A stretch of DNA of 64,000 nucleotides, from positions 1,986,501-2,050,500 of the forward strand of contig OX387200.1 in the NCBI GenBank assembly GCA_947561715.1, read 5' to 3'. Positions 4,139 to 61,744 of the stretch are shown in pieces. Under the pieces are notes generated by a model. The model made no database searches. It was not told the origin of the DNA and was given only the letters and a program-made list of their open reading frames with translations. The DNA comes from Ascidia mentula (Eukaryota > Chordata > Ascidiacea > Phlebobranchia > Ascidiidae). Each line of letters starts with the position of its first letter. The stretch's first letter is position 1. Position numbers and translations under genes: made by a program.

Positions 4139-4139
4139 G

Positions 4140-12176: not shown

Positions 12177-15100
12177 TCAGGGTAAATGATTTTCTTGTGT
12201 TTCAACGGCATCTCGTTTCAAAAAACTTTTGCCGTTAGTTTTTGTTCCCACATAATAAGGTAACTGAGTTACTGTGCCTTTTTTGCCCCCAACTTCTTCT
12301 AAAACGTACGACGAGATAAAGGAGCATAAATTGTTTTTATTCAACACGATTACGTGGTATAGAAAAACAAAGTACTGTATTATCTTAAATGCCTGTAAAC
12401 GAACGGCGAACTTTTGTATCACAATAAAAGCTTTACATCTATAGGACCTCCATGTAATCACGGTCAATTTTTCTTTCACTATTTGTAGTTATCTCACTTG
12501 CTGCAAAATATCAATTGTACAGTAAATAGTTTATTCTTAATGAAACAGCACAACCTACCATATACATGTTCCTTGCTGCTATTAATATCCGTTGGGGTTG
12601 CTGTATTTTTCCAAGTGGACAAATTTTGATGAACTTGTGTATTAACATCAGGTGTCACATGTTTATTTATGTTATCTTTCATTTTAATACCTTCAGAAAA
12701 AAACAATGAACTAAAGGTAATAAAAAAGGTTTCTATTATTGAACCGCCAGGTCAAAGTTAGTAAAAATTAAACAGCACTTACTTGTTGACCTTCTGTGCC
12801 ACAAAAATGCTGCAACAGCTGTTAAAACTAAAATTAAACCCCCAACAGTTGTGCCTATTATCAAGGGTAAATTGTGCTTTGGTGTATCGCCGTTCACAGA
12901 AATTATGATTACAAATGAACTTATACCAACTGCATTTGAAACTTTTAGTGTGTAAACATCTGCAGCTTCCTAGAGAAATCAAAATAAGTTATTTGATTAT
13001 TTGCGCAAAAAATATTACCAGAAATCAGCAATTCTGATATGTATTATTTTTAAACAATTGTCTTTATGTGAAAAAACATGTATACATAATAATTTAAAAT
13101 ATCATGTACTAATAAATGAATGGAAAAGATACAACAAAACCATTTTTGTGACATTTAAAATTAATTAGGTTCACTTTATCTAAAGCTTACATCAATGTAA
13201 AATATGAATGTTTGGTTCTTTTCTGACATCCATGTAACATCTTTATTGTCACCTCAAAAATATAAACAAATTTATTGAATAATTTAGTCGAAAATAAATG
13301 TTTATCCAACAGCACACCTGGTGATTCCAAAACGGAGGCCAGAGGCTGAGGCACTTAGTTATTGACTTTTTCAAAGTTATTTCTTCATTTAAAAAATGTA
13401 AAGCAACCAAACGTGAGTAAAACACATAAAAACAGTCCAAATGTTTTTTAAACAACTCATAAAATTATTCATTCCCTCTCAACTACAGTTTTATTAGCAT
13501 AAAGTACTTGTGGATGATGTAGAAAGTAGAAAGAATATCTAGTAGAATGAAACTGATACTTTTGACAGAAGGGATCCATTTTTATGTCAAGGAATTAACA
13601 AAAATTGCTTGAATCAAATTTACTACTAACATTTTGCAAGCAAATGATCAAACTAAACATTACACAAAAAACTACATGAAAAAAACTTTGCTAGACTTGT
13701 TAAAACAGCAAACCCAAGAGCTGATTGGTTGGCAAGTGTTTTTTCTTCATAACTAAATAGCATTTAACTTTTCTTGTATTGTTACCATTCTCACAAAAAA
13801 TATGTACAAACAACATTATTTGAAAGGAAAAAACAGGGACTTACAAAGCACCGTCAAGGTATGATGAAATGACCAACCAATAGTATTGTTGACTGCCGAA
13901 TATTTTGAGAGGGCCCGACAACAGATGTGTGCATTGTTCAGTTGAGGTTCCAGAAGTAAATTGTATGTAGGACTGCACTGAAGTGATTAATGCAATGTTT
14001 AAAATTTATACATCAATGTCATTCAATAATTTTAAAAACACATTTGTTTCCAAAATACCTGTGTCACAGAGTCATTGCCAATATGGAATGTGAAGTTTGT
14101 GACAATTGGATAAATGGGTAGAGTAACATTGCATGTGATGGAAATATTTTTTCCGGAAACTCCAGTTATATTTCCACTAAGCAATGGGTTGGGATCTTTA
14201 AACATAACTTAGATTTTCAAACCTTTAGTTTTTAGCCAAAGGTTTAAATAATTAAAAAACTTTTTTTATTCTAAGTGTGTTTGCATTTCCCAAGCTACAT
14301 ACAGGTAATCAATTAAAAATGATATGGAAATCATAAAGTTGAATCTGTTGTTCATAAATTGTTTGTCTGGCTTTAAACACTAAAATGGTGTTGCTTTTAA
14401 AACAGTATAACACAATATGTAAACTTGTATGCTTTAAATGGTATCTGTTTTTAAAAATTACACAAGAAGAGGCACAATACACTTACTATGAAAATCACAA
14501 ATATTTTGTTTCAAAAATTGAAAGTGATAGTGTTTTTCAAACAAAACTGCACTTTTTACCAAAGGTAAAATATTTAATGCTAGTGAAGCATAAAATTAAC
14601 TCCAACAGAGATTTTTGTTTCATTTTTTTATTACCTCCCCAACATTCTAATCCTTCAGCTCCAAACCATGTTGCATCATTTTGACAAATTGTATCCCTGA
14701 TACCAGGAGTTGAGTTGCTGTAAAACAACTCTTGTCCTGCTGGGCATTTGAACTTTCCTTGTACATTGTATTCATAACCTGATGCAGTGATGGTTGGTCC
14801 AACAACGGATATGCTTGATAAACAATCTTTACAAAAAATAAAGCTTTGCAAAGTTTAAATATTTTGTAAGCATGTTTTTCAACTTTAATTATTATTGAAA
14901 TTAATTATGATTGTTTTGTAATTATTTAATGTAAACCAATTGTACTTTGTACTTAAAGGCTACGTTTAGCACATGAGGCATACATTAGTTTACTAATTTA
15001 TACTTTTACCTGTTACACTGAAATTTATTGATGAATTAGGAATGTAGTCCCATGAAACTGAACGATGAAGTGAAGAAGAAATGTTAAAAAAAGTAATGAC

Positions 15101-16232
15101 AACTTTGAATACATTCAGACTGTTAGATATACACTCTACCAGGCACCTGTAGACAAAAAACTATTCTTAGATGCTTAGACATGGGACAGTGGACAAACCT
15201 GACAAAAAATAAACTTTAAAAATTCATTCCAATAATATTTCCAAGTTTATTTATAATTAATTTTAAATGTTAATGAACTACCCATGAAAAAACGTAATTA
15301 CCTGCGGGGAATGTTGGGCAGCAGTGCTGATGAAAAATTCTCTGAGCATGTGGAATCGCTGTCCGTCAGTGTCACAAGAACCTAAGTTACAGCATTTTCT
15401 TCTTGAATTTTACCAGGAGAAAATCAAACTATTTTGTTTAGTGTCACATTGTCAAGATACTGGTAATGTGTACTAAACCCAAGACACTAGTTTTGAATAA
15501 AACTGCAACAAGTTATGCGATTAAAATGATCTTGTGGAGGTAAGGAAGCCAATCATGGTGCAAAACTTGTACTTTGATAAATTGTAATTTGTACTGTGAC
15601 TCCATCATAAAAATTGGCTTTATTGCCTGGATTTGTGCCTATCTACCAACTCTAATGTATGTTTTAATGTGGACATTGGAATAATGCAAGGTAGTAATTT
15701 CCAAACACATTCTATAGTATTAAACTGGAGATTGTTCAACAAAAGAGTATAGCTGAATCATACTCTTTTTGATATTTAACATTTAGGTGCAAATAACTCT
15801 TTACATACATTATTTACTATCCATTCATTAAAATATAAACTGTATATAAATGATGATGATGTTGCTTGAACATAGCTTGTTATTGTTGTATTGGATCCTG
15901 TTGCCTGATTGGGAGAAGGTAGAATTGACAAATTGGTTGTTTGTCCTGCAAAACAAACTATAAAGTTATTGTGTATAACAACATGAAATGGACCCCTGAA
16001 CAATGCAAATCAGAAACAGAAATTACATAATAAACAAACCACTACAATTTATTGTGATGAAAGAATTAGATAGTTAGTCACACAGAGTTACTGCCAATTT
16101 GCTCAAAACTTCATGGCAGAAAACAATAGTAGAAACAACATTTGATTACATACCCTTTAGTAGTGGAACATTCACAAATACAACACATATAGCTAAAAAA
16201 ATATGTGGATATACTGGTGCTTGAAACATCAT
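12177..16232 (-). CDS. Gene A: type I membrane receptor, N-domain + CCP + Ig-like, tyrosine-bearing tail
   Basis: Eleven exons give an uninterrupted 465-residue protein: 16232-16154, 15945-15809, 15381-15302, 15146-15010, 14826-14635, 14195-14059, 13977-13845, 13252-13191, 12969-12783, 12690-12559, 12298-12177. Phases close throughout and nearly all introns are GT-AG. Exon 1 is a signal peptide. Exons 2-4 are the three-exon N-terminal domain shared with D, E and G. Exon 5 is a sushi domain with four Cys and a W-F-G...ECWG end. Exons 6-7 form an Ig-like domain. Exons 8-9 give a degenerate Ig fold (DVTW...ADVYTLKVSNAVG) without the canonical Cys, then a TM segment. The tail has HVYG and LPYYVG tyrosines. 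It is divergent to B with about 830 bp between starts. The short exon 8 is the least certain. Confidence 0.75.
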
Positions 16233-17061
16233 AATATTTTGCACCTTAAAAATATGAAAAATGTTCATTCAACAAAAATGGTTTTGAAACCTTGCACAAA
16301 CAACACACATGACTTAAAACCCAACTTCCAGGTCAACAAAAACAATAAATGTTTCTTCCTGCAAGTTACAAAAGATGTACATAACCGCAGGAAACTACGC
16401 GGACCCAAGCTAAGGAGAACCACATATGTTCGACTCTAATAATTTAGGTACTGTTCCACTTTCGTTTTGTTAACAACCCACCAATGACGAAACACAACAG
16501 ACCAAATATTGACAAAGCTGTCTTATTTTTGTATAAATGACATCACTGGAATAAAATACTGCTTGCCTAGCTGCCGCACTGCAAGGGACGTTTTGCACTA
16601 ATATTGAATCAAACCGCCAACACAAGCTCGTTAACAGAACGAACTCACGACAAGCAAACAAACTTATTTGCTGCGTGTGTTCCTACAAGCGTTAGGCGGG
16701 TTTCATGTGCGGTTTGGTTAAATTTAATACCTGAAAGAAAACTTTTCTGGTTTTGATCTAACTAATCGTTATTACATCTGATCGTGAAAGAAAGTTCATA
16801 TGTCGTCGTCTAGTTCTTTACAAGGTCATCCTTTTTTGGTTTTCTTGTAAATGCGCATTTTAAAAAAGAGCCCATACATTACCTGTAGCAATAACCTATT
16901 AATTGACTTTGAAACTTTACATAAAATGTAGAAGTAAAATATTTGATTTCATGGTAAAAAAAAACTTTATTGGCAACACTTGTGTCTTGGTGAGTTTTGT
17001 TTAAAAATTTAGCAGTTGCTGGTTTTCTCTTTTTTCAGGTAGTACAAGTTTTGTAACAACA
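16233..17061. other. Divergent intergenic region between genes A and B
   Basis: Separates the start codons of A (minus) and B (plus), so it should hold both promoters. No TATA box is convincingly placed and no coding exon was recognised. Confidence 0.4.
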
Positions 17062-18060
17062 ATGAATAAAAACCTTTGGATTGTTTTGGGAACTTTTCTT
17101 GTGTTGTGCTTGCAAAGTTCAGGTAGTCTACGGTTATCCTGTTTGCACATCAAAATTTAGTGTTTTATAGAAATGTTCCCTAACTCTTAGATGCACAAAT
17201 AATTTCATTATCTGATGGTCTCATTGATGGTGGAAATGTTGCTGTGAACTTTCGGCCAAGTGTTACATTCCGGTTTTCGCTGGATACATACACAAGCTGT
17301 AGTTGGAAACGAAACTCCGATTCACTTCTTCATTTTTTTGTATTTAATGAATGCATTGACAGTGATTCTTTACCACCAAATTTAACCTGTGTTCAAATTT
17401 CTACAACTGTTACTGCAACATTTATACCACTACCTGTTACCAGCCAAAAAAACCTTTCAATTGATCTGATCTGTTCTCCACCAAATCAACCAACGCCAAG
17501 CATATTTCTTACCGGAAAATGTAAGTGATTTTTAGGTATTTGTTTGTACATAATACTTGTCTTTCTTATTTGCACAAAACCTGTACAACTGGTAGTTAGC
17601 CTAATAAAAGGATTAACTTTCAATAATTACTGTTTTACTGTAAGGTTTAGTTGTAAAAATCTGGATAGCTATATTTCCTGTAAAGTCTTGCTTTTGTGGT
17701 TTTAATGTCTGTATACTTTATTTTTCATTTTTTTAACATTACCTGAGATAAGCCAATAAATATTCACTTTTTCCTGTTTATTCCTTGCTATTTCCAAAAC
17801 ATTTGCTGTGTCATTCAATTTACAAAGAATAACATGATCAAAATATAAGGTTGTAATATGTGCTATGATTTTCAGACTGTGGAAATGTTACATTTCCTGG
17901 AGTAATTCAGGATGTACCAGCCAACAATGACTACATGAGCACCCATACCTTTTCATGCATGACAGGATATCAAGGAGCATTTCAAACTGCTACATGTCAA
18001 GCTGATGCTACATGGAATCTTGTACAGCCTGTCTGTACAAGATTTATAATTTTGGATTAA
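17062..18060 (+). CDS. Gene B: small secreted N-domain + CCP protein
   Basis: Three exons (17062-17122, 17191-17520, 17876-18060) encode 191 residues. Exon 1 is a signal peptide. Exon 2 encodes an unfamiliar 110-residue Cys-containing domain in the position of the N-terminal domain of its neighbours. Exon 3 is a clean sushi domain (CGNVTFPG, FSCMTGYQG, TCQADATWN, VC) ending eight residues later in TAA. No membrane segment exists, so a soluble product is predicted. Exon junctions are all phase 1, as in the larger receptors. It could act as a soluble partner or decoy; that is inference. Confidence 0.8.
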
Positions 18061-18230
18061 AACATGATATTATTCAAATCTTCCATTGTCTCACTCTCTT
18101 CAGTTTTATAATAGTTAACCTACAATTTTTGCTTTTGTCAAGTCAATAATTTTTCATTTTGATGGGAAGTTAATGCATCCCATCTCACTTCTTTAAACAC
18201 TAGTTGTAAAGGCCGTCTAGTAAATTACCT

Positions 18231-18425
18231 GCCCAGCATTCCAAACCTTGGGATCCACTTCAAACTGCATTGTTTTGACAAACCGTGGTGATTGCAATTG
18301 GATAAGTTGAGTTAGTGTAAAGCAACTTCTCATTGGTGTTACATTGAAATTTACCAATGCCATTATAGTTGTAGTTGACTGCATAATGACTGGTCCTAAA
18401 AGGTGTTACTTGGGCATTCTGAAAT
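18231..18425 (-). pseudogene. Orphan CCP exon with frameshift and stop
   Basis: On the minus strand the sequence reads like the CCP exon of gene A (KFQCNTNEKLLYTNST, TVCQNNAV, QGLECWAG). It has a frame break after the first Cys block and TGA where the family has Trp. An acceptor-like and a donor-like site remain. No neighbouring exons of the same gene were found, so it is a stranded fragment just 3' of gene B. Confidence 0.75.
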
Positions 18426-18429
18426 GACA

Positions 18430-20010
18430 AAATAAAATCAAATATTAGAAGAACAATCTACTACATAGATAAACTTGCCGATCATGCAATGTTAGAAGAG
18501 CACACTTTGACAATGACAAAATTAAATTTTCATGCAAATTAAAGCTCAATCAACACCACATAAATTTATTGCAAAAATTCATCAAATGATAAATATTGGG
18601 AGCAAAATTACACCTGGGAATCATAACTTAACCTACTGTTAGCTACAGATTACAAATATAAAACTAACTGTTTACATCTTAAAAAAGCAAGTGTGGATTT
18701 AACTGCAAAGGTTGAATGCAGTTTTTTGGCAATAAGAACCACGAGTTATATTTCGATTGTGTGTTATGGTGTAGCCATTACATGGCTTTCAAACAACACA
18801 AAATCACATCAGAGAACTGTACGCTGTGAAACAAAAGCACTAAATTTCGCGAGTTGGTGTCTTTAATAAATTGTTGTTTCCCTTTACAAAAAAATATGCT
18901 TTTCCGTAATGGAATGTATTTGAAAAATTTCCCAAAAACATTATGGCGATAGATGGCGCTAAAATTCTGCATAAAAACCTTGAATGGGATTCGTTACCAG
19001 GCCGGACAAACTGTGTTCGAGTTCGGTTGTAAAAAACAATCCGGAGGTCTATGATCACCAAAATTTTCGGCTCAGAATGTTGAACAGCGAAGCAATCTTT
19101 TGAATGAAGATTGTTGTCGTCAAAATGTATTATCTTTTTCCACTTGTTTTATTGTAATGTACGTGTAGGTATAGGGTAGGAGTATATAATGTGAATAAGG
19201 TGAGCACATTATGAGCTTTTTCTGCAAACAACCCGCAAATACTTTCAAATATTACGTGTATGTGCGTGTATGTACAAGGTGAGTTGAAAAATGTGCGTTC
19301 ATTGATAAGTTATTTACAACTTCAAGATTCGGTCAATATATCGAAAACCAACCTTTTCGGTAAATTTATAAATTAGATTTGGAAGAAATAAAATATGGGA
19401 AAAGTATCTCGCACAATTTAAGAACATGCTGAAATTGGTTTATTTGCGTATAAAGGTGATATATAACACGTAGGGTTGGTTGACGCTTTTACATGTGAAT
19501 AGGAAATAAGTCAGGATATAATCACCACGTTGTCCTGATCATATTGCAAGTTGTTGATATGTTTTTTTTATAACATCCCACCACAGGATCGCTGAATGCA
19601 CCCTTCCATTTTGTTGGGAGAGCAAACCAAGATTTTACCAGAGCCAGATATCTTATTCCCCACAAGAGGGCGATAAAAATCGTATTTAGTACAAGGAGAC
19701 CCTTCATGGTTAGCTTCCAAGCAAGCTATTTCTTGGGTTTAGAATTTTCGGCTCCAAGATACAAAACAATCAATAAACGTGACGTCTGCAAATGATGGCA
19801 AGATTCAATTTTTTTGAGATTTTCGTCTGATTAAAAATGGTAAAAAGCAAGTCACAAATGTAATTTCCTGGTTTAATTCTGGGGAAAAACGGTCTTGATG
19901 GGAAAAAGTACCCGGATGTTTAAGATTTGGGACTAGAAATTTGTCTACGTGACTAATATAACTCTGTTGCAATTGTGCGGTGACAAATATGATTTACCCA
20001 CTGTATCAGA
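18430..20010. other. No gene recognised
   Basis: Short open frames on both strands have no family features, splice-site support or homology to other parts of the window. Confidence 0.4.
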
Positions 20011-20012
20011 TA

Positions 20013-22370: not shown

Positions 22371-22383
22371 ATAACCACGTTTA

Positions 22384-24500
22384 CCTAGACAAGAGCCTTT
22401 AAAAAGGAAAGTCCCATCCTCCAAACAAGTTCCATTCATCGAGCCAATATACCCTGTATTACATTCAAACTCGCATGTTTGTCTAAGGTTACAACTCCAG
22501 CCAGGTAACATCTTTACACTTTGACAATTTGTGCCGCAGTCTGATAAATCTGTAACAACGACTATGATTATTCCGCTTGGTGGGAGTACAGAGTCGCATT
22601 ATCACTTACCCGCTACAACAACAAACTGTGTGCTGAACAACAGTTTTCTATCAAAAGCATGGGCAGACATGACAACTGAACCATCACTTATTTGATGAAG
22701 TCCAAATGACATTTCAAAACTTATGAAATCGTCCGCAATCACACTAAAAATGTGTTGCAACTTTTGTCTGTGTGGGATTATTTAGTTGTATTCCGTTTCC
22801 TAAAAGACGAACAATGTCACAGACAGATTTGTAGATGTAAATAAATACATAAACGGCTTAATTGTTTCAAACAAATTGTTTGAGGTAAAGGTTTAGCTGT
22901 TGGTTATTAAAATAGTATAAAAATGGCTTTCGCCTGCATAGGCGTCATCATTTTTTTGTGAGATTAAAACATTCGCATAAAAATAAAAATAACAAAAAGT
23001 TCTAATTAAATTGATTAAATAAGTAAGTAGATGAAACAGAAAATGGAAACATGTCGTTTCCTTTTGTGCCGTGTCTGTAGTACCCAACTATTAACTGCAC
23101 TACAATACAGGGCCTTACGATTCCGTTGACACAAAGATTAGTTAGTGCGAACTCACATGAACACACAATGTCGAAACCATGCGCAGCATGAACACGCGTT
23201 GTTACGCAACATTGTACGTCATGGCAGCAAGGTTGGATGTTTGTGAAGATAAATGGCTGAACTGCACACAAGCCAGAAAAAAACATCCCAAATATTATCC
23301 ACCCAGGATTAGTTGACGGAATTTATTGGTGTTTCATTGTTGTGCCTTATTGTTGTATTACACCTTTTGTCATTACTGGCATCACGTACATTTATGTGCA
23401 ACAACGTGTGTTCATGCTGCGGGTGGGTTCTACGTCAAGGACTATTCTATTGTATTCTATAGCATTTGAGGAACCAACGTACTTGGCAAATGCACAACAT
23501 CCCAACCGCCACTTTGCACCAAGCTATAGCGGTTTGCATTATCTTCGAAGTTCAGGTCAACAGATTCAGAAAAGTGATCCTACGACAGACTGGCTGCGAT
23601 TCTACGACAGACGGTGATTCTCCGTGAGGTAATCACCTTTACATGGGCGCCTGACTCGATAACCTTTATGGTTTTATCGGTGCCCATGCCATTTCATTTC
23701 CTTGTATATTGTTGCTTTTTTTCGCAAAATAAACATGATTTGATTTGATTTTAACAGAATTGCTTGCAGAACATTCTACACAACATTAAAACAATTTGTA
23801 AAAACACAACCTTTAAAGAGTTACATCTATATAAGTATTCTGAAAATAACAATTGAGGAAAGAAATTAAGAGCTAGACTTTTAAACCACAAAGTTTCACA
23901 TGTCGGTTTGACAGTGAATATCAGGCATTCAAGTTTGCTGTAGATTCAAACCTGCAACTACTTGAAACGACAAAGTATCAGAAACAAGAGAGTCGGTTTC
24001 AATTTTTACAGTAAGAATATTGTCTTCAGCTTGCACTCCAATGTTAAAAAAACAAAGTTATTAAGTTGGTACCGAGTCTTTCGCTGTAAATGAAGGTTAG
24101 ATAAATATCATGTAAGTTTAACATACACCAATTCAACTACCTGCTGCACGTTACACGCGATTCGTAATCAGTCGAGGGGTATTTTTGGCAAAAGCAATGT
24201 CTTTCTGCTGTACACGAACAAACTACCACTTTCTAGAACACAATCATGTTTTATGACACTATTTTTCCTTAGTGTGAACAGCAGCTATGAAAATATCACA
24301 AAACATTCAAGACGTTCTCAGGGTTAAAAAATGCTCTTTAATGTAAACTTCTGAATAACGAGCAAAATAGATGGTCTTTTTGTAAATGTGGTAAGAATCC
24401 TATAATTAATCTGGTTATTTCCGACCTTTTCGTTTAGATACCAGTCTCCCTGAAAGTATACGGTCCATGTCGAGTTTGTACGGCGCACTGAGTCATAAAG
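22384..24500 (-). pseudogene. Gene J: decayed minus-strand type 2 receptor (N-domain and Cys-rich exons)
   Basis: Fragments appear in gene order on the minus strand. A possible first N-domain exon lies near 24500-24430 (TWTVYFQGDWYLNEK before a weak donor). A second N-domain exon at 24232-24141 keeps the usual length and phase. A third at 24083-23952 is two bases short in phase, so frame-broken. A Cys-rich exon lies near 23266-23110. A second set follows: about 22845-22770, a third-type exon at about 22762-22618 ending FSTQFVVVAG, and a Cys-rich exon at about 22541-22384 with six Cys. No signal peptide or TM exon was found. It sits head to head with gene C. It may be a pseudogene or a poorly resolved gene. 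Confidence 0.45.
23573..23757 (+). mobile_element. 3' end of a dispersed retroposon, inverted partner at 30456-30640
   Basis: gatcctacgacagactggctgcgat...ggtgattctccg...gcgcctgactcgataacc...aaataaacatgatttgattt is matched in reverse complement at 30456-30640. Ending in short tttga-type units suggests the 3' terminus of a LINE or SINE. Two copies in opposite orientation flank gene C. Confidence 0.65.
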
Positions 24501-48407: not shown

Positions 48408-51400
48408 TTATACGTAACCTTCTTTGGGCGAACTACACACGGTATTGTTTCTTTTCATTATAAGAAACATAACTCCAAGGCCAACAATAACACCCCCAAG
48501 TAAACAACCAACTCCCAATCCAATTTCCTCTGTTTCATTTAGGGTACCTTGTAACATTTTTTTTCAATTACAATATGTGTTTCGGTTTAATAGCAAAATG
48601 ATAAACCCACCTGCCGGTACTGCTCTTACTTGAACGCCTAAAAATACGTTTTTTTACAAAAAAAACTGTAAAAAAACAAACCATAAGTTACCTTGGCATT
48701 CTCCAACAATTAAATATGTTCCATTTTGTTGACAAAGGGCAGTTTTATGTCCATTAGAACATCCAACTTCAACAACACATTGGTAACCGCACTCATCCGG
48801 AACATTTGTAATATTCAAGCCCGTGCCGTCGCAAGCTGAAAGAATATAATTGTGGACATATTTTTAGAACTTGTTCATATGCTTTAGCTCCTTTTACCTT
48901 CGGAAACAATTATTTCGACTTCTCCTAGAAGTGTCGTATTAAATGCCCAAACACTAATAGAGGAACCATTATCTTTGTTATCAAGAGATTGAACTTCCAG
49001 CTTAATTGTAACAACGTCAGATACCTCAAAACTGGAAAAATAAATAAAGTTTGAATTTTTTGCGAACATTCACAACATTACCTGGCTCCTTTCAGAAAAT
49101 TTAAGTGACGAAAACTAAAATTATGTCAAGATATGGTAAACATATTCTAACCTTAACAAAGTTCTGCCCTGAAATTTGCCGGAAACCGAAGACCATTGAC
49201 CCATATTGGACGATGAAAAGTATTGGAACTGACACATAACCTATAACAAGGGCATTTTTCTTAATATCGTTTTTGTTTTTTATTTATTTTTACTTGGTCG
49301 TCTGTTTTCCAAGTAACTTCAAAATCATCTACTTGAAACGCAATGGAGAAAACTGCTGCGGAACCAGCAACTTGACTACCGGTGTTACTTGATTCCAAAG
49401 ACAGAGTGCTGTTTTCTGTAAAATAAATAATTATGCTATCTTGCATTCACTTCACAGTATTAGAATTACAAAACTTAAATGCATACAATGTTTTCATACT
49501 TATAACGCATGCTACATCCCATTTGCCAGAGCTACTGCATTGAGCGGCACCGGAATCACTGCATTTAACAACACTTCCATAGTCATATGAAGGACTTGAA
49601 GCCACGCAGTTTTGTCCACAACCTTCAATAACTCCGTCCGTAACAAAACATTCCACTAGAATAATGAATTATTTAGTATAATTATGTTGGTGAAATTATA
49701 TTTGGAAACAGTTTGTTGCTGATGCTGCCAGGCACATTACTTAGTAATTTGGGGCTCTTGTGGCAAAAAGAAAACTTGTTTGAACGACGTTTCAGTCGTT
49801 ACGTCATCAACCAAAAATGTCATCCAAACAAGTTTTTCTTTAGGTCCGAAGAGCCTTAAATTACTAAATATTTGGAAACAGTTTATTTGAACATTGAGTT
49901 ATAATATCTTTCCAAAGTACCAGGAGCGCAAGTACTCTCTGAAATAGTGTACGTTCCATTTTCTTGACATGTTCCATTAACAGTACCCTGATAACCCTCA
50001 ATGCACTGTAGGGCACAAGGTTTTCCCAAATCGCAGTGGTATCTACTGGTTGTATCAACATATGGACACAATTCTTCACAACCCGAACAATCTATGATAA
50101 AATATAAGTTGTCGTTTGGTGGCGCTATGGTGTCTAGTTTGACTTACCATCAACCACAATAAAACTTATGCTGGGAAGTAGTTTGTTTCCAAAGGCTATG
50201 GCGCCAAGTAAAATAGTTCCATCCCCGGACTCAAGTTTGCCGAATGTTAGTACAAAACGGACTACTAAACTGTGTATTTCAACACTAAAACAACTGGTTA
50301 ATATTCGAAGAAATACACATTGAATTGACACATTGAAGAAACGTACCTGGCATTCGTTCTTGAGCTGAGTATATTTTCACAGGAACTGCTGTTTGTAATT
50401 AATGTATATTGACATGATGCTACATCCTGAAAATTCCTTAGTTAACTTAATAACTACCCGTTTTTAGTGTTTGCTGAAAGTAGTATTTGTGTATAGCTAC
50501 CGTGCTGTTGATTGTGAAAACCACTTCAAAATTGGCAGGAGAAATTCCATAGGAAATCGTAGCAGTTGAACCAACAACTCTTTTTCCTGTTGGATCTTGA
50601 GAAGGCATTTCTGGAAGTTTCAATAAAAACTTTAAAAAATGTCCACCTATATTCTCCGTACCTGATTTATTTAAATAAAAAAATACCTAAAAACTTTACA
50701 ACATTCCAATTGGTACTGGGTTCACACCAGGCGCAAGCGTCTACATTGCTGCAGTTGGCTCCAACAAAGTCTCCACATTTTTTTTCGGTTACCGAAGAAT
50801 CGTAAGGCACACATTCAAGCTGTAGGTTGTCTACTTGACAAACCACTAAATATGTATAAGTGTAATGTATTATTGTTTTAAGCTGTGCATCTATCAGCAA
50901 TAGAACAAAGCAACTGTAACAGTTGCGTTTGTCTTAGTTTCACATACTGCTATTCAATTCACCACAATTGCGTAACTAGACTTTTTTGAATTTGAATTTT
51001 CTCTACCGTTTTTACAGTTGTTTGTTATATCATATGTAGCATCCTGCAGACAAACCGCTGTTGCATTGCCGTAGTAACATGGATTACAAGCAATGGTTGA
51101 AATACAATCGAAACCAATACAAGGTTCAATAGATGTAACATTATAGTATTCTGAAGTGTCATTTTCAATGAAACAATCTGCAAAGAAAAACTTCTCATTC
51201 AAAAAGTATTGTCGTATTTTAAGTGTCTGTGAGTTGTGAAATTAGCTACGTTTGGCTGATCAACATGTTTAACGTCAATTGAACAACACTTTTTGTTAAT
51301 ACTTTTATTAAAATTATTGTGGAATTTTTAACGCTTCCCACCTGCAACCACTTCGAACCTTAACGTGTCGATAATGGTAACAATGCCACTGTCATAAAAT

Positions 51401-51944
51401 GTCACTGCCACAGTTACGTTGCCATCTTCTTGGAAAACCGTCATGTTAAGATACATGATACTTTGACTTGTAAAGTTGTAGCTAAATATAAATTGTTTCT
51501 GAATTAAAATGTCTATAATTCACCCTTATAAGTAAGAATAATAAACGTGCCTAAACGTGGTTCGGTTTTCGTAAGGAGAAGAAAGATTCTGACAACCGAC
51601 ATAATGCTCGTCATTAAAGCATTGGACCACATCCTTTATAACACAAAGCAGTGAGAATAATAACATAAATTTCATCCACAAACCTTTTCATACACTTTTA
51701 CCTTATCGTTTATGTTCCAAAAGCTAATAAAGATGTTCGAGGACAGACTGATGTTCAATATGGCCGTCGAACCATTGAGTTGTTTTCCTGTCGTAGATTC
51801 TAGCTTTATGACGTCAAGGTCATCTGTGTTTAATAACAGCAATGTTTTTTTCTTTGTAATATCCAAGCCTGACATACCTTGTTGATTACATTTCCCACAA
51901 TTGAAACACACCAGAAATACCGCAAGGTAACAAATAACCTTCAT
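48408..51944 (-). CDS. Gene G: type 2 receptor, three N-domain/Cys-rich units, short tail
   Basis: Seventeen exons close in phase to 683 residues: 51944-51878, 51823-51702, 51633-51551, 51481-51342, 51177-51007, 50845-50687, 50610-50501, 50426-50347, 50285-50149, 50091-49921, 49655-49500, 49415-49294, 49240-49152, 49031-48898, 48835-48692, 48637-48611, 48547-48408. A signal peptide is followed by three units. Each unit is an N-domain in three exons (first ending before W-x-x-N-x-Q/K-like residues, second with a Cys, third with DNGT-like and F-x-V-x-x-G), then one or two Cys-rich modules of four to eight Cys. A nine-codon stalk exon precedes the TM (GLGVGCLLGGVIVGLGVMFLI) and a tail of about 17 residues ending GYV. 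The second exon of unit 1 has a GC donor. A MITE lies in one intron. The N-domain fold is not identified; a degenerate Ig-like sandwich is a guess. Confidence 0.87.
49697..49884. mobile_element. Intronic MITE-like element in gene G
   Basis: Imperfect inverted repeats at about 49743-49783 and 49825-49865 (agtaattt..ggctcttg..aaagaaaacttgtttg) enclose a short core. The block tatttggaaacagttt occurs on both sides (about 49698 and 49868), as a direct repeat. Superfamily not assigned. Confidence 0.6.
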
Positions 51945-52009: not shown

Positions 52010-52830
52010 AATGGAACACAGTCGAAGGAAAAAAATGATATGTTTGAACATCAGCGTTTCATGTCTGTGCAGTACAGGTAACATGTTCCTGCCACAACGA
52101 TGGTTGTGATTTACATTAGTAACAAAGGATATCAAAAACGTACAGTGTCAAGGTTATTTTTATTTATGTTTTGGTAACAAGGTACGACATGTTTATGAAA
52201 ATATGTTTTTTTTATGTTAATGGTGAAGAAGACAAGTTATCACCAAACCGATCAACGTGGGAAACAACATTTAAATCAAGTGGGAATTGTGCAACAACTA
52301 CATTGGAGGTAAATGCAATTGATAAAAATATGAATATGTTGAATAGGACATGTCCAATTAACAAACCAAATACAGCATGGGATAAATGTGTTTGTGCAAG
52401 GTAAGACAATATTGTGATATTCAATGACAACAATAAGTAAAACGTATTTCTGCGTATCTAAACAATTCCCCAGCTATAATATTTAAACCTTCAACAAAAA
52501 AGTGTTGTTAACAGCGGGGTTCGGCAAGTATTCTTTATTTTGTTTAGACTATCCGTTGAATGTAGTAAACTTTTCTACACCAATGACACCTCCATACACT
52601 GTTTGGCATCTGCTCTGTCATATAAGGTATAAAGGTTTTGTGCAAATATTTTTCATTAATGCAGAGCCTTAGTTTACTTGACGACTAATAATGAAGGAGT
52701 GGAAGGTTTGTTAGTGTCTGCCTCATGCACCTATATGGATGTTCTTCCTGTCGGAGATTCAAATGTATTCTTTTTCGGAACAAATGGCACCCAAACAACA
52801 AAAGTATGCCTTCTGTTTACGTTTGGCTTC
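52010..52830 (+). pseudogene. Shredded copy of the 5' part of gene H/F
   Basis: Similarity follows 57820-59050 in order. The leader region (52010-52110) is followed by the N-domain exon at about 52216-52401 with an internal deletion that joins GEEDKLSPNRSTW to the distal third, a truncated CCP exon near 52547-52625 and the Ig1 first exon near 52664-52803 (VSASCTYMDVLPVGDSN) with a small gap. No Ig2 onward. It is not translatable as a receptor. Confidence 0.85.
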
Positions 52831-53884
52831 TAGGCACATGACTCTGACACGAGTATTGTTACTTTCAATGCTACATCATTGAAAACACATTTGCAAGACA
52901 AACGTATTTTGATATTAATCTAATACACACTTTAATACACTCACTCACAAGCTCTTCTGGCAAACGAGAATTTACTCGGGCGATGTTTTAATCATTATGA
53001 TCGAGCTGTATCAGGACAAAGTGCATAAATGCAAACACCACGCAAGATATAAGAAAGCGTAAAAAATGCAAAAGGGGAAGAGGAAAGAAAGCAATGGAAT
53101 AAAAAACTGCGCACAAGCTAAGCCTTTTAAATCTTATGTCTTTGCCTAAACATTTTGACACGCTGTATATTATTTGTGATAAATTCGATTATTTTGCGGA
53201 GTCAATATAAGGTACAAATAACTGTTTTGAGGTTTGGTTTCGTTTTTTTCCAGAAAAAAACAAAAACAAACAAGCCAGCTTTGTAAGCATTTTTTTCAAC
53301 TAATTATAGTCCAGCACGACAAATAATTTCACTTGACAGTTGCTTACTCATTATTTGCAGTCGCATGTAACTTGACAACAAATATAACGAAAATAACTTC
53401 TTGCATTATTTCCTGCTTCTTGTGTGCATTGTTCTAGTTACTCTCAGTACGATCTTTGTATTTTTTTGAAAAGCAACATTTTCATAAAAACACAAAGAAT
53501 GTACTGAGAGCAACACTATAATAATTACACCTAACGTTTTTGTTTTCTATTACAATATTATGTACGTGTAATGTATCGCATTGTGTAAAGTTATATTTGA
53601 TGAAACCGCTAAATTTCGTGAATATGGAACATTTGTCGTCAATATTGAGGACAAAATAAAACTTTACCTGGTCTATTGATTCCAGGTTGAACACTAATGA
53701 CAAACATATTTGTAAGTTGTTAACGCAGTTCTTTCGAAATGATATCAAAACTGTAATATATACTCACGGTATATGTTGTAAAAATATGCATTTGGCAGTT
53801 TTATGACATTTATGTGGTATTTGACACAAAAGCTGTGTCTACTGGAATATGTTGAAATAAGTGATCATAAACACTCCCATTACT

Positions 53885-54395
53885 GTTGCGAGGTTTCAAA
53901 TCTTAGCTGTCGTTACCAGTGGAGAGCACATAAAGCCAGACAAATAAATAACTTCGGCAAACCTACTTACGTCAGACATAGAAGGGCAGGGGATCCGGTT
54001 CATCGTAAATTTAGCAAACGTCCCGTACCTGTTTGTATTGCTTCGTTGCCCGACTTCCACGGCAAACAAAGTCTGTGATTGCGCAAACGCTCGTCGCAAT
54101 CCTGTTGTCATTTTGTTGCAAAGACTTTCGTTTTTAGTCGCAATAAGATAATTTAGCGCATTTTGTGTAATATGAGCTATGTTATATTCCAAAGTACACA
54201 CGCAAGCACAATATGTCGGTGAAATATTCGTGGTTTTGATGTCACAAGGAAATAATTGACCGTTTCTCTACTGAACATGTAAGATATCAGACTGCTGGGC
54301 AAACAAACCAGTCGGCAGGGTAATCAGCACCCTATGCTAGTTGACAGCAACTTACCGGGCCGCTTTGGGTAACTGCTTTTTCCACCTAGTGTCAA
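53885..54395. repeat. Dispersed repeat, copies at 62468-62715, 63020-63115 and 63560-63665
   Basis: Shared blocks include agcaaacgtcccgtacctgttt, ggcaaacaaagtct, actttcgtttt, and caatcagcaccctttgctag-like with ccagcaacttgccgg-like words. Copies are diverged and non-coding. Confidence 0.75.
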
Positions 54396-54436
54396 ATATT
54401 AGATATTAAATATTATTTAGTTGATACTAGGTGGAG
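54384..54436. repeat. Small hairpin, tccacctagt/actaggtgga
   Basis: tccacctagtgtcaa and ttgatactaggtgga lie about 25 bases apart in inverted orientation around an AT-rich loop. It may be a termination or foldback structure of the surrounding repeat. Confidence 0.6.
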
Positions 54437-57400
54437 AAATAAAGTAATCTTTGCAAGAAGACGGGTACGTTTGCCGGTAACTATAGTCGTAAACAACTTT
54501 GTACACACAAAAAATGTACACGAACAGGTGTGACTGTAGATTTGAATTGTCTCACATCATTTCGGATAAATGTTACCATTTTTCAATTGATCATGTATCA
54601 CTTTTATTCTCGCAAATTCGTTTGTCTGCGTAGTTTTTTCTATACATGTATTTTGATTTTCATCGGACTACGGAAATTATTTCAAACCCCACGTTTATAT
54701 TTATTTAACCGGCAATTTAATGCATAGGATCGATCTCCGATCTAACAGTGTACCGCCTTGGGGACTTTTTTTGTTCATACCGCTTTTTCCCTGTCGAAAG
54801 TATAAATTGCTGAAACATAACAATACCGAATATGAAAATACGCAATGATCACAAACAACCACAACTTGCTGTGTGTCAAAATTATTTCCAACATTAGCTA
54901 CACTACATGAGCAATAGTTTATTGCTAAAAACAGATAACTAATATATTGTGATAAAATAAATATTTCGTCCTATCACCATTAATTTTGCATTAAAAAAAT
55001 TTTGAAAGTTCATCTTTCAGTAAATTGTTTTTAAAAACCATAACTTTCTATGACAAACAAAAATTGCTTTAAACTCATTGGGCGAATTCCACATCAACAT
55101 TTGTATTTACCTTCCTTTGGATATAAAAACTTCTTCAATATGATAAATTGGATTTTTTATACATAAAATGTTCTGTAGTCATCCGACTAAACAAAGGGAT
55201 ATTAGGTACATATTTCGTTAAACGTATTTGTAGACGAACTAAATGTAAGTGAATTATCCTCAAAATAAACCAAACAAATATCAAGATACTTATCCACATT
55301 TTTTTTTATATTTTTTTGTGATTTTTTTGTGAAATAAAAAACTATAGAATGCCGTATGTTTTACACAGAAACTATATACGCTTGCATCAACATGGATTTT
55401 AATCAAGAACAAGAACATTTTTATGGTTGGTTCTTTTTTGTTTGCCTTCGTGGCATAATCACAGCAAAGGCTTCGTTACAGATTATAACGCTCCACGACG
55501 CTGATGGCGCGGACGCAATTATTCTGTGGGACTGGGAGGTCCAAAGCCTATTGCCCAAAAATGGCCTGAATGTTTCTCCCCAGGATTCACAGTTTATTAT
55601 CTGCCTGTAGAAAAAAAATTCCCAATCCGGTGATTAGCTTTGATGAGTCTCAGTTATAATAGTCCTATCACCGTCTTGTCAATAGAAGATCGAACACCGA
55701 AGAAAGAACCGAACAGTCTACAGAATAGCCTTGCATCGTATACAGAGTCGAATTAACAGGCGCACATAAGTATTAATAATTGAAATCCGATTGGTTGATT
55801 TAGTCACGTGATGATATGCACCACCTGGGATAATATAATACAAGAACAAGCATACAAGATAATAAAAACATGTGAGTAATCGTCTGCTTTAACGTTGCTC
55901 GAAACAGTAGCAAAGGAAGTGGTAAACAGGAAATTATGGGTTTCGCTCGGGAGTCGATAAGGCATAATTGGGTTATATTCGTGTAAAGCAGGGTAAACAA
56001 GTTTGCAGGCAATTAGTGCAAGCATCCCTGCAACAGTATGCCATTACATGACGTGGCCGGTGTCGCTAAACTCGGAAAATAATTGTTTTCCTTAACCACA
56101 GTCATTTCGTTATGGTGACCTTGTGACGTAACAAGCATCTACTATGCCCTCTTCCTTTCGGCAAATAGAAGGTTTGAAAAGTTGTATGTTCAGCCGCAAA
56201 TTTAGTATGTGATAACAATATTCCATTCAAACCAAGATGCGAAACTTCATATAATCAGGTTTGGATACAATTTTAAAACTGTTTTATGGACAATCGGGAT
56301 AGTAAATAAAGGTGCTTATTAAACTTGACCGACCTCATTCTACCAGTTGGAGAACTGCAAGGTGAAATTAGCAAAGAGCTTAAAATCCACAGGCAACTTT
56401 TTATAGATATAAAAATAAAGGCAACGCCAGTCAGCAACCAAGTGTACATGGAATGGAAATGAATGAAATGATCGCTTATCAAGATAAACACATTTAAGCT
56501 GGCCAGACACATTTAAGCTGGCCAATAAAATCACATAAAAACACAGCCGTTGCGTAGAAACTAGTAACGAGATCAAATCACGTGAGAAAGCAACCGTTGC
56601 TATACATTTAATAATGAGATGCTGGACAAGACGCTACCTAAAATGCCTTAACACAAAAAAAACATGGAAAGAGATTCCGGACGTTAATGACGAAACTGGC
56701 TGTTGTGTGACCATTGATCATATTTCCATGAATGCAAACGTTGCTATGTAACGTAACATTACGTAACTTCATCAAAGGAATAGATGGTGGTTTGGTTTCG
56801 TGGACTCCAAGCTTGCTCCCTGCTGATCGCCGGTAGTACCTTGTGAACAGTTTCTGTTGAACGCTATCACACGCCGCCGTAATGGGATGAGTGTTGAATT
56901 GCTATTTGATTTGAAAGTTCATATTTTTCAAAGATCCATACAAGTGCTTTAAGTTCATGTATGTACCTAGTTCTCCAATTGGATGTTGTGCTTTTGAAGT
57001 TCCTTGTCGGTTCGAATTGGCAATGAGATTTATTTTTATTAACATCTTTGTTCCGTTATTTGCTCATGCGCATTTGTAACGATGTTTTCTTTTATAATTT
57101 AAACGAGCATTGAAAAAAGACATTTAATTCTTTATTGCATTGCAGTTCTGTTAGAACTGTTTTTAATTTTTGTTTTATCACTTTTTTGTTCCTTTTGTCC
57201 ACTGCAAAAAGGGTGGCAGCATTCTGCTGAAATAGTTGTGCAAAAAACGCAAAAGTAGTATATGCATAACCATTATCCTCAAAGTCGATTTTTGGAATAA
57301 CCCCAAGTGTGAGCCATGTCACACTTAATACTTCCAAACTGGAGGAGATCTTCCTAAAAATAATTGGCTTACAAGAGTTAGGCGTCCCCTCGTAACTTAA

Positions 57401-57957: not shown

Positions 57958-60900
57958 ATGAAATCTTTGTTAGCAACTCTATTTATTACGATTGTATTAA
58001 AGAAGAACATTCCACAAGGTAAAATATACAATTTATTTTGTTTCACTATATGGAATATCGTCGAAGTCATTCTTATTTAGACTTAGATTACCAGATGTAC
58101 GACATGTTTATGAGAATACGTTTTTTAAGTTAATGGTGAAGAAGACAAGTTATCACCAAACCGATCAACGTGGGCAAGTGGCTACACAGGAACACTTTAC
58201 TCAATTACCTACAGTAGTACTTTCTCAAAAACCAGTGCCTGGAAAGTTTATTTGTCAAATGGATTCAATGACACGGCGACATGGATTGTTTATCCTGATA
58301 TGACAGTAGTGCTTACTTCGTTTAATTTATCTATCTACAATACAACATTTACATCAAGTGGGGAATGTGTAACAACTACGTTGGAAGTAAATGCACTTGA
58401 TGAAACCATGAATCAAAGTTACGTTGAAATAAGGTATGGCGAATCCACTATACCAATTCAGCATGGGACAAATGTGTTCGTGCAAGGTAAGACAATATTG
58501 TGTTATTCAATGACAACCATACGTTTTGCATATGCCAACCTGTTAAAATATAATAAATAAATAAAATTGACACGAAGGAAATTTAAATTATTTATTACAT
58601 TGTTTAGACTGCCCGCTTATTCTGGGATATAATCTAAGTGTGAATCTTATATCACCACAACCAACCTATAAAAGTATTGGAAATTTCACATGTGCAAACA
58701 GTGGAAAACTTTTCTACGCTAACGAAAGTAAATTGTTTAATCCTTCCACAAACTGTTTGGCATCTGCTCGGTGGTCGGGGCAGGAAGATTTGCAATGTTG
58801 GTCAGGTCAGTTTTATTGGATTTATACTAACTTCATTTAGAAAATATAAAATAAAGAAAAGGTTTTGTGTATGTATATATTTTTCATTGATGCAGCGCCG
58901 TCAGTTTACTTGACGACAAACTTGACAAATAATGAAGGAGTGGAAGGTTTGTTAGTATCTGCCTCATGCACCTACATGGATGTTCTTCCTGTCGGAGATT
59001 CAAATGTATTCTTTTTTGGAACAAATGGCACCCAAACATCAAAAGTATGCCTTCTGTTTGCGTATACTTTCCTACGAATTGTGAATATTCTTACGACAAA
59101 AATAATTGTTTTTTTGGGTTAAAATGCTTGGGAACTTAAAGACTGTTATCACACATCATGTTTAGGAAGAAAGGTTTTTATTCAATTTAAATCGGAAACA
59201 ATTGAAAGTAGAATTTTTTTGTCAAGCAGTCACTCCATTTACCGAGATCTACAATGATACAGGCATATCGAAACCAATCGTACTCCAAGTTTTTTGTAAG
59301 TATCTTCGAGTCATTTTCGACATTGTGATTGTAATTGCAATATTCAAGTAACATGAATGATCATTAACCACTTTCAACATATTTTTATTTTTGTTTGGTG
59401 TGTCGAATACATATCTTTGGCAAAATTACCGAATGAATCTTTGTAGATCCTCCAGGAGATACTTCAGTTAACGTTGTGAATATCAATCCTTCAATAAAAA
59501 AACTGGGAACAAAATTTTTGCTTAACTCAACTCAGTTAGTTGAACTGTTATGTCGGAGTGATTCAAATCCTACAGCCAACTGCTCTTGGACCTTCAACCA
59601 AACATGTTTTTCCACTACTTGTCAAACCAAGTATAATTTCACACAAAGTGGGACGGTCATGTGTAATGCCAGCAACGAATATGGGAACGCGGAAAACTCG
59701 CCAGTGCAGATCGAAGTAGTTGACGATCAAAGTAAGAAACAAGAAATGTATGAGATATGCATTAACTGTCATGTTTTCTAGGAAAACCTCAAGTTTCAAC
59801 AAGTGCGATTCCAAAAGAAGGAAAACCAATTACATTAACATGTAACATTGCTTACCAAATTGAATTGAGCACGACGATAAAGTGGTTCACTCCGACTTCA
59901 ACTGTCAATGACGCTCAAATAATGATTGCTAACTTATCAAGATCAGACTCAGGAATATATGTTTGTGAAACAAAAGATGATTTTGGATCGTATTTCCAGC
60001 ATTTTGATTTGGAGGTGTTTTGTGAGTAACCATTTCTAAAATGTGGTTTGGGGCGGTTTTCTACATTTCCTTGATGTTTGTGATGTGTAGACGCTCCTGA
60101 AGCAATATCTGATGCGAATATTTATTGTTCGTGGAATGAAGTGGGTAGTCACAGTTGCAGTTTTAACTTCACTTCAAATCCGACAACCGATAATTTTACA
60201 TTGTATAACAATGGTACGTATAGATACATATGATAAAAGTTTATTACTTTCAAGTAATTTTCCAGGAAAGAAGATATCATGCGACAAATGCTACTTTACC
60301 AACATAAGTAATGCGGAAACATTTTTTTTATTATTAAAGGTAAAAACAATGATGTAATGTTGGTGGGATACAATGTTGAACAAGTACGGAATATATTGTG
60401 TTTTGACTAGCTTTCAGTCAGGTGTTTAGGGCAATATGATTATGTTTTGGAACATGTGATCGATCGAAATGTTATTTTCTGTAGTCAACAGGCAAAACAG
60501 AGGCGTACACGTTAAATATTTGGTCAAACGAATTTGAAGATGAAACACTGGAAGCAAAGTTTCAGGTTGCGATTGATGACGAAAGTGGAGCTAACAACAC
60601 GCAAGCAATAATCATTGCTGTCTGTGTTTCTGTCAGTGCTGTCATTATTTTGGGATTGTTTGCTGCATATGTTTTACACAGAAGAAAGCAAATCAAAGAA
60701 AACGGTAATTTCTTTTTTTATTTACTGAGAATAATGTTATGCTTATGAAATTGTTGTTGGGACACGTTTGTAAATTTTTGTCAGAAAATCAACAGGACAC
60801 AATCTACGTGAATTACGCTACCAGGCTTTAAACGCAGCTTCACATTAAGTTGATTTGGTATTTTACATCACGTTTAAATGTCAAAATTATTTCATCACTA

Positions 60901-61744
60901 GCAAAAACAAAAAAGTTAAAATGAAGTGTATTTATTCACATTTTATTTGGAAAAAGTAACAGAAAAGGTGGACGCAGTAAATCCTATTCACGGAGATGGT
61001 GATAACATTGAGGCCTTACCGGATGCTTTCACAATCCCCTTAGCCAACTCACTTAAAAACGGTAAAAAGCAAGAAACAGTGAATGTAAACATATAAAAAT
61101 TTATTTAATTTTGCTTCGTATCTTTGCCAGCAATATTTTTGCAGCAAAACATGTTGATGGTGACAAAAATGGTTTACATATATTTTAGCAACAGTGATAA
61201 CGCTTTATTGTAGAAAAAGAGGAACAACTTAACCCATTGTATATATCATCTGGTACCCAAGACACTTATTCCGAAGTCCAAAAAACAAAGAAACCCAAAT
61301 GTGGTACATTAAAAGAAATTAAACTGATATGTGCCACTTCCTAGTTTTGTTTATTTTGTGATTTAGAAAAAGAAGACAAACTTAACCCTCTTTATGGATC
61401 GTATGAGGACGAGAAAGAAGAGAAGACAAATCCGCTATATGGTTCCAATTACCATACATCCGCATTGCACGGCGAAACATATGCACAAGTTAACAAACAA
61501 AAATTGCCAGAAAACGGTTAATAACCCAAACAATTAGTTTAAATAACTGTTGTGTATTTTTTCTTATAAATCTTTTCGCTTTATTTTCTGGTAGAATTAA
61601 CTTTTAGGCATTTATTACTAAATTACACAGTTTGCTTTTCCAGAAACACCTAAACCAAAGCCGCCTAAGCCACCAATCAAAAAGAAGCCAAATCTACAGA
61701 CAAAACGTATAATCCAAACCACATATTTGATACAAAATGTATGA
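57958..61744 (+). CDS. Gene H: type 1 receptor with long multi-motif signalling tail
   Basis: Fourteen exons close in phase to 758 residues: 57958-58018, 58130-58486, 58608-58805, 58896-59044, 59166-59295, 59447-59731, 59782-60021, 60091-60213, 60266-60339, 60485-60704, 60963-61061, 61214-61303, 61367-61516, 61644-61744. The ectodomain equals F: signal peptide, N-domain, CCP, three Ig, membrane-proximal domain and TM (IIIAVCVSVSAVIILGLFAAYV). The tail has LNPLYISS and TYSEVQKTK in one exon, two more NPLY and TYAQVNKQK in the next, and a proline-rich last exon (PKPKPPKPP). NPxY motifs bind PTB domains, TYxxV resembles ITIM/ITSM-type sites, and PxxP suits SH3 domains. If the donor at 61517 is not used, translation ends four bases later at 61519-61521. 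Exon 60785-60831 is an alternative short end. Confidence 0.85.
60785..60831 (+). CDS. Alternative terminal exon of gene H (short tail)
   Basis: An acceptor (ttttgtcag) in the right phase opens ENQQDTIYVNYATRL followed by TAA. Using it would end the protein right after the TM exon with a YVNY tyrosine and remove the NPLY/TYxxV/proline-rich exons; skipping it gives the long form. Both outcomes are in frame. Confidence 0.6.

What the first reader, a model, noticed from the sequence alone, without database searches (positions are those of the whole stretch)
12177..61744. Cluster of modular CCP/Ig receptors that swap N-terminal domains in matching phase
Eight genes and several fragments share exon cassettes. 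Signal peptide, N-domain, CCP and Ig units begin and end in phase 1. The three-exon N-domain (1-0, 0-2, 2-1) appears alone (A, D) or repeated (E twice, G three times), while C, F and H use a one-exon N-domain before the same CCP and Ig cassettes. This suggests rapid exon shuffling of recognition modules, as in allorecognition or innate immune loci. The function is inferred.
Basis: partly seen in the sequence, partly recalled or inferred. Interest (0 to 1): 0.9.

Follow-up and report, generated by a model that had tools for sequence, protein, structure and literature searches.

The report
Paired receptor gene cluster, sea squirt
This stretch of a solitary sea squirt's chromosome holds a changing cluster of two kinds of cell-surface receptor genes, several of them sitting head to head in pairs, in a layout that resembles the self/non-self receptors described from a colonial sea squirt.

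Summary
Six receptor genes (C-H) can be modelled with 73 introns (70 GT, 3 GC donors, 73 AG acceptors). All 44 between-module introns are phase 1, and the three-exon N-domain is 1-0/0-2/2-1 in 6 of 6 modelled copies. D has an in-frame stop before its membrane segment; A has lost its 5' end.

The reading needs correction: there are two receptor classes. C, F, H have a one-exon N, CCP, Ig modules, membrane segment and a tail (Y-x-x-V in C and H). E and G have three-exon Ns, other CCPs, no Ig exons found and very short tails. Only D joins a three-exon N to the Ig body. In the stretches fetched, 8 of 9 short-tailed genes or truncated copies lie head to head with a signalling-class gene or remnant; four of these pairs are damaged.

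The layout resembles the fester/FcoR pairs of Botryllus (PMC12065747), but membrane-segment number, Ig number and size fail membership. Module exchange between neighbours is directly visible. Function (paired innate or allogeneic recognition) is inferred.

The parts
24593..28998 (+). Gene C, signalling class: SP 24593-24659, one-exon N 24927-25316, CCP 26479-26667, Ig1 26870-27015 + 27111-27240, Ig2 27325-27609, Ig3 27677-27922, Ig4 28016-28138 + 28205-28281 (GC donor), TM 28409-28655, tail 28805-28864 + 28928-28998 (ENVYQNV)
   Evidence: a copy with 87-96% aa identity in N to Ig4 modules lies at C67:1979602-1983829
32845..36466 (+). Gene D, hybrid: SP 32845-32905, three-exon N 32987-33102/33162-33253/33305-33438, then C-like CCP 33816-34007, Ig1-Ig4 34194-35604 (GC donor), TM exon 35784-36027 with in-frame TGA at 35877 before the membrane segment, tail exons 36240-36308 and 36369-36466
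   Evidence: C/D similarity begins about 14 bp before the CCP exon
38830..42010 (+). Gene E, short-tailed class: SP 38830-38914, three-exon N (39005-39562), CCP-type exons 39715-39885, 39983-40141, 40633-40791 (last two a tandem duplicate), second three-exon N (40872-41359), CCP 41526-41714, TM 41895-42010 with a 7-aa tail
   Evidence: (93.6% tandem repeat 39898-40148/40552-40798); GC donor at 39123
43741..46755 (-). Gene F, signalling class: SP 46677-46755, one-exon N 46260-46613, CCP 45926-46123, Ig1-Ig4 44441-45838, TM 44117-44339, short tail 43846-43902 + 43741-43780 without Yxx(V/I/L)
48408..51944 (-). Gene G, short-tailed class: SP 51878-51944, three three-exon N-domains, five CCP-type exons, one TM and a 12-aa tail (48408-48547)
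57958..61521 (+). Gene H, signalling class: SP 57958-58018, one-exon N 58130-58486, CCP 58608-58805, Ig1-Ig4 58896-60339, TM 60485-60704, long tail 60963-61521 with NPLY three times, DTYSEV and ETYAQV
22381..24457 (-). Gene A, 5'-truncated short-tailed partner of C: N exons and CCP 22386-22547 kept, signal peptide and most of the first N exon missing
12739..18457 (-). Decayed signalling-class pieces: CCP 18230-18367 (in-frame stop), CCP 14636-14824, a membrane segment within 12739-12969
52011..55443 (+). Decayed H/F-like gene head to head with G: N remnant 52246-52399, Ig1a 52672-52803, tail-exon remnant 55354-55443
30972..31067 (+). Isolated first N exon of the short-tailed type
1254..1445 (+). 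Stray C/D-type tail exons (HVYENV), outside the stated coordinates

Best explanation
A birth-and-death cluster of transmembrane recognition receptors on chromosome 4 of Ascidia mentula. Shown by sequence: two linked classes, (1) a signalling class (signal peptide, one-exon N, divergent CCP, several Ig modules, one membrane segment, tail often with Y-x-x-V and NPxY motifs) and (2) a short-tailed class (signal peptide, two or three three-exon N-domains with divergent CCPs in E and G, one membrane segment and a 7-12 residue tail there); repeated head-to-head placement of the two; recent exchange of modules among copies. Inferred: each head-to-head pair shares a promoter, is made in the same cells and acts as a unit in which the N-domains bind a ligand and phosphorylation of tail tyrosines carries the signal; exchange at same-phase introns and replacement of tails renews combinations of binding and signalling. 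Most likely role: innate immune or allogeneic recognition.
For: Models and phases. Clustering: the one-exon N of H hits 7 places and that of K1 14 others, 21 with the queries included, 18 of them on this contig at 1.755-2.144 Mb; the Ig3 exon of C hits 72 places, 65 of them at 0.93-2.16 Mb of this contig (lists are lower bounds). Pairs: 8 of 9 short-tailed genes or truncated copies in the fetched stretches lie divergent to a signalling-class N exon or remnant; start codons 633, 200, 723 and 686 bp apart in four pairs where both signal peptides were found (first ATG of each for the short-tailed gene). Pair K2 and pair A/C share sequence across partner gene, gap and N exon. Exchange: K2/C break after N; F/H mosaic. 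Tail: TY[AS][EQ]V occurs 6 times in the six-frame ORFs of the stretches against 0.4 on average in 50 shuffles, and the six places are in the tails of K1, K2, H (two), P6 and P7; the pattern was written after seeing the tails. Signal-peptide-like starts for C-H by a hydrophobicity scan. Published parallel: Botryllus fester/FcoR pairs are linked, co-expressed and tied to recognition (PMC12065747, sections). Solitary ascidians reject allografts and their blood cells react to foreign ones (PMC5465252, passages).
Against: No transcripts, expression, ligand or population data. Four of the eight pairs are damaged: A and its twin K3m have lost their 5' ends, the partner of G is decayed, and at 2097.4/2098.4 kb both sides look decayed. 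E is not head to head, nor are F, H and several other signalling-class genes. No ITIM or ITAM pattern in six window tails and four outside excerpts; F has no Yxx(V/I/L). The N-domain matched no meaningful Pfam or PDB family and its models are poor (pLDDT 47 and 55). CCP evidence is modest: Sushi at E up to 0.1 in 5 of 13 and 2 of 14 members, none of 10 single window CCPs over the cut-off. No evidence of diversifying selection specific to N.
Confidence: 0.6

Rival explanations
1. Ordinary Ig/CCP adhesion or complement-regulating proteins that happen to be duplicated, with no recognition of individuals or microbes.
For: PDB matches of H's Ig part are mostly adhesion molecules (neurofascin, MAG, NCAM2) with CD22 lower; the short-tailed CCP profile's best matches are factor B and CD55, over 23-28 of 57 positions. 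Same-phase modules are common in such proteins (recalled).
Against: Tight clustering, decayed copies, different tails on near-identical ectodomains and repeated head-to-head pairs are more typical of immune-type families (recalled).
Confidence: 0.2
2. Receptors or adhesion proteins of eggs or sperm that block self-fertilisation.
For: A. mentula is reported to have a block to self-fertilisation (PMC7344649, passages); a tight multigene cluster with module exchange would suit it.
Against: The known system of Ciona, s-Themis on sperm and v-Themis on eggs (same passages), is a different protein family (recalled); tails with tyrosine motifs fit cell signalling. No expression data either way.
Confidence: 0.12
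3. A mostly dead array or an assembly artefact.
For: A, D, the 12.7-18.5 kb pieces and the 52-55 kb copy are damaged.
Against: Five of six window models are open over 521-726 codons; the assembly is from HiFi reads with QV 64.9 (PMC11109543, first of three parts read).
Confidence: 0.05

Closest known systems
Fester co-receptors (FcoR) of Botryllus schlosseri
   Same: Signal peptide, N-terminal domain, sushi, Ig modules, one TM, tail with core Y-x-x-I/L/V motif; large linked family beside a second receptor type; relatives on several chromosomes (review sections; here)
   Different: 650-726 aa here against 520-610; four Ig modules (Ig2/Ig3 repeated in some outside copies) against two C2 Ig; no ITIM found, hemITAM not tested by pattern; N-domain not shown to be IgV. 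No Botryllus sequence could be compared.
Fester family (fester, uncle fester) of Botryllus schlosseri
   Same: Signal peptide, extracellular part over several exons with one coding the SCR, short tail, gene beside an FcoR (here)
   Different: One membrane segment in E and G against three; several N and CCP modules in one protein.
Polymorphic CCP receptor of Ciona (vCRL1; the match of name and passage is recalled)
   Same: CCP-containing protein made by blood cells of a solitary phlebobranch, proposed as individuality marker (PMC5465252, passage)
   Different: No Ig part or gene pairing is mentioned in the passage seen; sequence not compared.
Vertebrate paired receptors such as KIR, LILR, SIRP (recalled)
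   Same: Near-identical ectodomains with different tails (F and H)
   Different: No ITIM pattern found; different domain order.

Membership tests
FcoR (Botryllus) | Signal peptide, sushi, Ig, single TM and intracellular tail | tested here: met
   C and H; F with a short tail. Sushi support is modest.
FcoR (Botryllus) | N-terminal V-type Ig domain | tested here: inconclusive
   Mostly beta but low-confidence models; no family or structure match
FcoR (Botryllus) | Two C2-type Ig domains; 520-610 aa | tested here: not met
   Ig1-Ig4 modules; C 676, F 650, H 726 aa
FcoR (Botryllus) | Tail with ITIM, hemITAM or core Y-x-x-I/L/V | tested here: met
   Core motif in C, D, H and in K1, K2, P6, P7 excerpts, not in F; no ITIM pattern in any; hemITAM not tested
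Fester family (FF) | Three transmembrane domains | tested here: not met
   One membrane segment in E and in G. Outside the window unresolved: unspliced scans show three hydrophobic segments downstream of K1m and of K2m and one of P6m, none modelled
Fester family (FF) | Sushi domain and short tail without known signalling motif | tested here: met
   CCP profile's best PDB matches factor B and CD55, E 0.0016-0.0028, partial length; Sushi in 2 of 14 members; tails 7 and 12 aa
FF/FcoR locus | Each FF encoded next to an FcoR | tested here: met
   8 of 9 short-tailed genes or truncated copies head to head with a signalling-class gene or remnant, four pairs damaged; E lies between D and F. A remnant at 2062.3-2065.3 kb without such a partner was not counted (8 of 10 with it)
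FF/FcoR locus | HECT E3 ligase gene beside each pair | tested here: inconclusive
   The genome search with PF00632 did not complete (20 attempts, last); a recalled active-site pattern gave 0 hits in unspliced six-frame ORFs of the stretches, a weak test
FF/FcoR | Sequence homology to the Botryllus genes; fuhc neighbours | not testable with these tools
   No Botryllus sequence was found in the collections offered; the framework genes are not named in the passages read

The most novel reading that the evidence does not exclude
Head-to-head pairs of a short-tailed ligand-binding receptor and a tyrosine-tail partner are an ancient ascidian recognition system that predates colonial life. Botryllus took it over for colony fusion, while the solitary A. 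mentula still uses it for blood-cell or gamete self/non-self recognition, with pair heads and signalling tails exchanged as cassettes.
Probability: 0.3. Interest if true: 0.88.

Novelty: new variant of a known kind. Interest (0 to 1): 0.66.

Why it matters
If right, a receptor layout described for one colonial ascidian is also present in a solitary, distantly related one, so it did not arise for colony fusion. The origin of the Botryllus effector system then becomes testable by comparing ascidian genomes, and F/H give a chordate case of near-identical ectodomains on different tails. Searches of open papers (listings seen) listed no report of this cluster; the bioRxiv preprint on the FcoR genes is not held in the library.

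Tried and rejected
Rejected: one gene family with free N-domain swapping (only D is a hybrid); an IgV fold for the one-exon N (not shown); ITIM or ITAM tails; diversifying selection on N. A protein-collection search with the Ig3 exon of H found nothing, but a cut-out exon cannot find full-length relatives there. The structure comparison of the better N model had no match at E 0.001 or below, best 0.044 to a lipocalin. One-mode checks that gave little: single window CCPs against Pfam.

Corrections on the way: the TM identities of C are wrong (exon misframed), and the phase counts are superseded; the first ends of C, D, E and F exons were wrong. replace them. The Ig4-to-TM junction of C and D is a GC-AG intron; with it D has one stop instead of the ten shown.
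Full report
SOURCE. The window is C67:1986501-2050500 of a 195,842,439-base genome in 79 contigs. Contig lengths 23,172,987, 22,722,200, 19,871,177 and 19,661,885 equal, to two decimals, chromosomes 3, 4, 7 and 8 of Ascidia mentula kaAscMent1.1 (23.17, 22.72, 19.87, 19.66 Mb; PMC11109543, first of three parts read), and C70, 21,170,000, fits chromosome 6 (21.17). The published total is 197.0 Mb in 95 scaffolds, so the held copy is slightly smaller. I take the source to be this solitary phlebobranch ascidian (taxonomy), chromosome 4; the identification rests on lengths, not on a sequence comparison. Two glycosyl hydrolase 6 matches agree with a tunicate (that link is recalled).

WHAT IS IN THE WINDOW. 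A self-comparison of ORFs shows families of repeated exons. From splice sites and paralogue comparison I built six models (corrected in 111, 114, 128): C 676 aa, E 521, F 650, G 672, H 726, all open, and D with one in-frame TGA at 35877 before the membrane segment. All 73 acceptors are AG; donors are 70 GT and 3 GC. All 44 between-module introns are phase 1; the three-exon N is 1-0, 0-2, 2-1 in six of six modelled copies. C, D, F and H share CCP, Ig1 (split by a phase-0 intron), Ig2, Ig3 and Ig4 modules; E and G have other CCPs and no Ig exon was found in them.

DOMAIN IDENTITY. Ig is secure (Pfam Ig_3 3.6e-11 in C, Ig_2 6.9e-11 in H; PDB neurofascin 3.6e-9 with H). CCP is likely but divergent: Sushi at E up to 0.1 in 5 of 13 signalling-class members, best 0.0013, and in 2 of 14 short-tailed-class members, best 0.0012, where Metallothio_5 matched 3 of 14. 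Among 10 single window CCPs, Sushi appears in two, at 0.09 and 0.13, below the cut-off. The short-tailed CCP profile finds factor B and CD55 in the PDB at 0.0016-0.0028, over 23-28 of 57 positions; the other CCP profile finds sodium-channel beta-1 at 0.008 and no CCP protein among its 18 matches. Whole G matched no Pfam family. The one-exon N matches nothing convincing; models have pLDDT 47 and 55, with no fold match at E 0.001 or below.

THE LOCUS. Counts are lower bounds of the tool. The N exon of H hits 7 places, all on this contig. The N exon of K1, an upstream gene, hits 14 others, 11 on this contig, three with a stop inside; so 18 of 21, queries included, lie at 1.755-2.144 Mb. The Ig3 exon of C hits 72 places, 65 at 0.93-2.16 Mb of this contig. 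A short-tailed CCP of G hits 6 places, 5 on this contig. Profiles over 1931.5-2100.4, 2126-2146 and 2150-2160 kb (the rest of the region was not read) show 15 signalling-class loci with CCP followed by Ig exons. Of the 14 whose N is in view, 13 have the one-exon N; D has the three-exon N. Nine short-tailed genes or 5'-truncated copies were seen. Eight lie divergent to a signalling-class N or remnant: K1, K2, K3, A/C, G/52-kb copy, P6, P7 and decayed pieces at 2097.4/2098.4 kb. E is the exception. Not counted: single pieces at window 17869-18039 and 30972-31067, and a remnant at 2062.3-2065.3 kb with no such partner. In four pairs with both signal peptides found (K1, K2, P6, P7), start codons are 633, 200, 723 and 686 bp apart. 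In K3 and A/C the short-tailed partner has lost its signal peptide and most of its first N exon.

EXCHANGE. K2 resembles C from the partner gene through the gap to about 160 bp past the N exon (blocks of 85-91%: 1962678-1965790 against 22381-25505). Its N is 88% identical to C, but CCP, Ig1, Ig2, Ig3 and Ig4a only 36-50%. F and H match at 87-90% in DNA from 58120 to 60029. Synonymous divergence is 0.046-0.056 in N, CCP and Ig3, 0.19-0.35 in Ig1-Ig2 and 0.65-1.86 in Ig4-TM, and introns follow (95% N-CCP, 86% Ig2-Ig3, 56-79% elsewhere). The tails differ. C/D similarity starts about 14 bp before the CCP exon. E carries a tandem duplicate of a CCP exon (93.6%). dN/dS for N is 1.21 (F/H, 17.5 and 4.5 changes), 0.44, 0.70 and 0.69 (C/K3, C/K2, K2/K3); Ig3 of F/H is 1.09: no proof of diversifying selection on N.

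TAILS. H has NPLY three times, DTYSEV and ETYAQV; K1, K2, P6 and P7 carry the same TY(S/A)(E/Q)V module; C ENVYQNV, D HVYENV; F none. The pattern TY[AS][EQ]V, written after seeing the tails, occurs 6 times in 265,279 residues of ORFs against a shuffled mean of 0.4, maximum 2 in 50 shuffles. No ITIM or ITAM pattern in six window tails; no ITIM pattern in four outside excerpts.

MECHANISM. Shown: anatomy, clustering, divergent pairs, exchange, tail motifs. Inferred: shared promoter, joint expression, ligand binding by N-domains, signalling by tyrosine phosphorylation, recognition role. The Botryllus review (section 8 with its sub-sections read; abstract and passages in 15, 16, 20, 80) describes linked FF/FcoR pairs, co-expressed, with core Y-x-x-I/L/V, ITIM or hemITAM tails. 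The present locus would work like that, but membership fails on the number of membrane segments (E, G), Ig number and size, and sequence homology could not be tested. The fester exon layout comes from passages of PMC3549757. Because A. mentula is solitary, colony fusion is excluded; allograft rejection and blood-cell reactions in solitary ascidians (PMC5465252, passages) and the block to self-fertilisation in A. mentula (PMC7344649, passages) are the open roles.

Noticed in passing
2942-9440 +: A retroelement with a gag-like ORF (DUF7041), reverse transcriptase, RNase H and an integrase piece, followed by ORFs without a Pfam match in the place of an envelope gene.
   Followed up: partly
L027, L028 (C67:1592001-1602000, 1056001-1066000): A long array of Ig2/Ig3-like exons on the plus strand at about 0.93-1.6 Mb; in the two pieces read no CCP match was listed, so possibly an Ig-only branch of the family.
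   Followed up: partly
C70:12.05 Mb, C73:4.89 Mb, C2:15.40 Mb: Signalling-class relatives on three other chromosomes.
   Followed up: no
1270-2879 and 36234-37424: Duplicated segment (85-95%) carrying the C/D-type tail exons and downstream DNA.
   Followed up: no
28281, 35604, 39123: GC donor splice sites in the models; C and D share one at the Ig4-TM junction where F and H have GT.
   Followed up: partly
C67:12.99-13.02 Mb, C72:11.88-11.93 Mb and 2.08-2.11 Mb: Dense arrays of canonical Sushi exons elsewhere in the genome (150 best candidates scored); relation to this cluster not examined.
   Followed up: no
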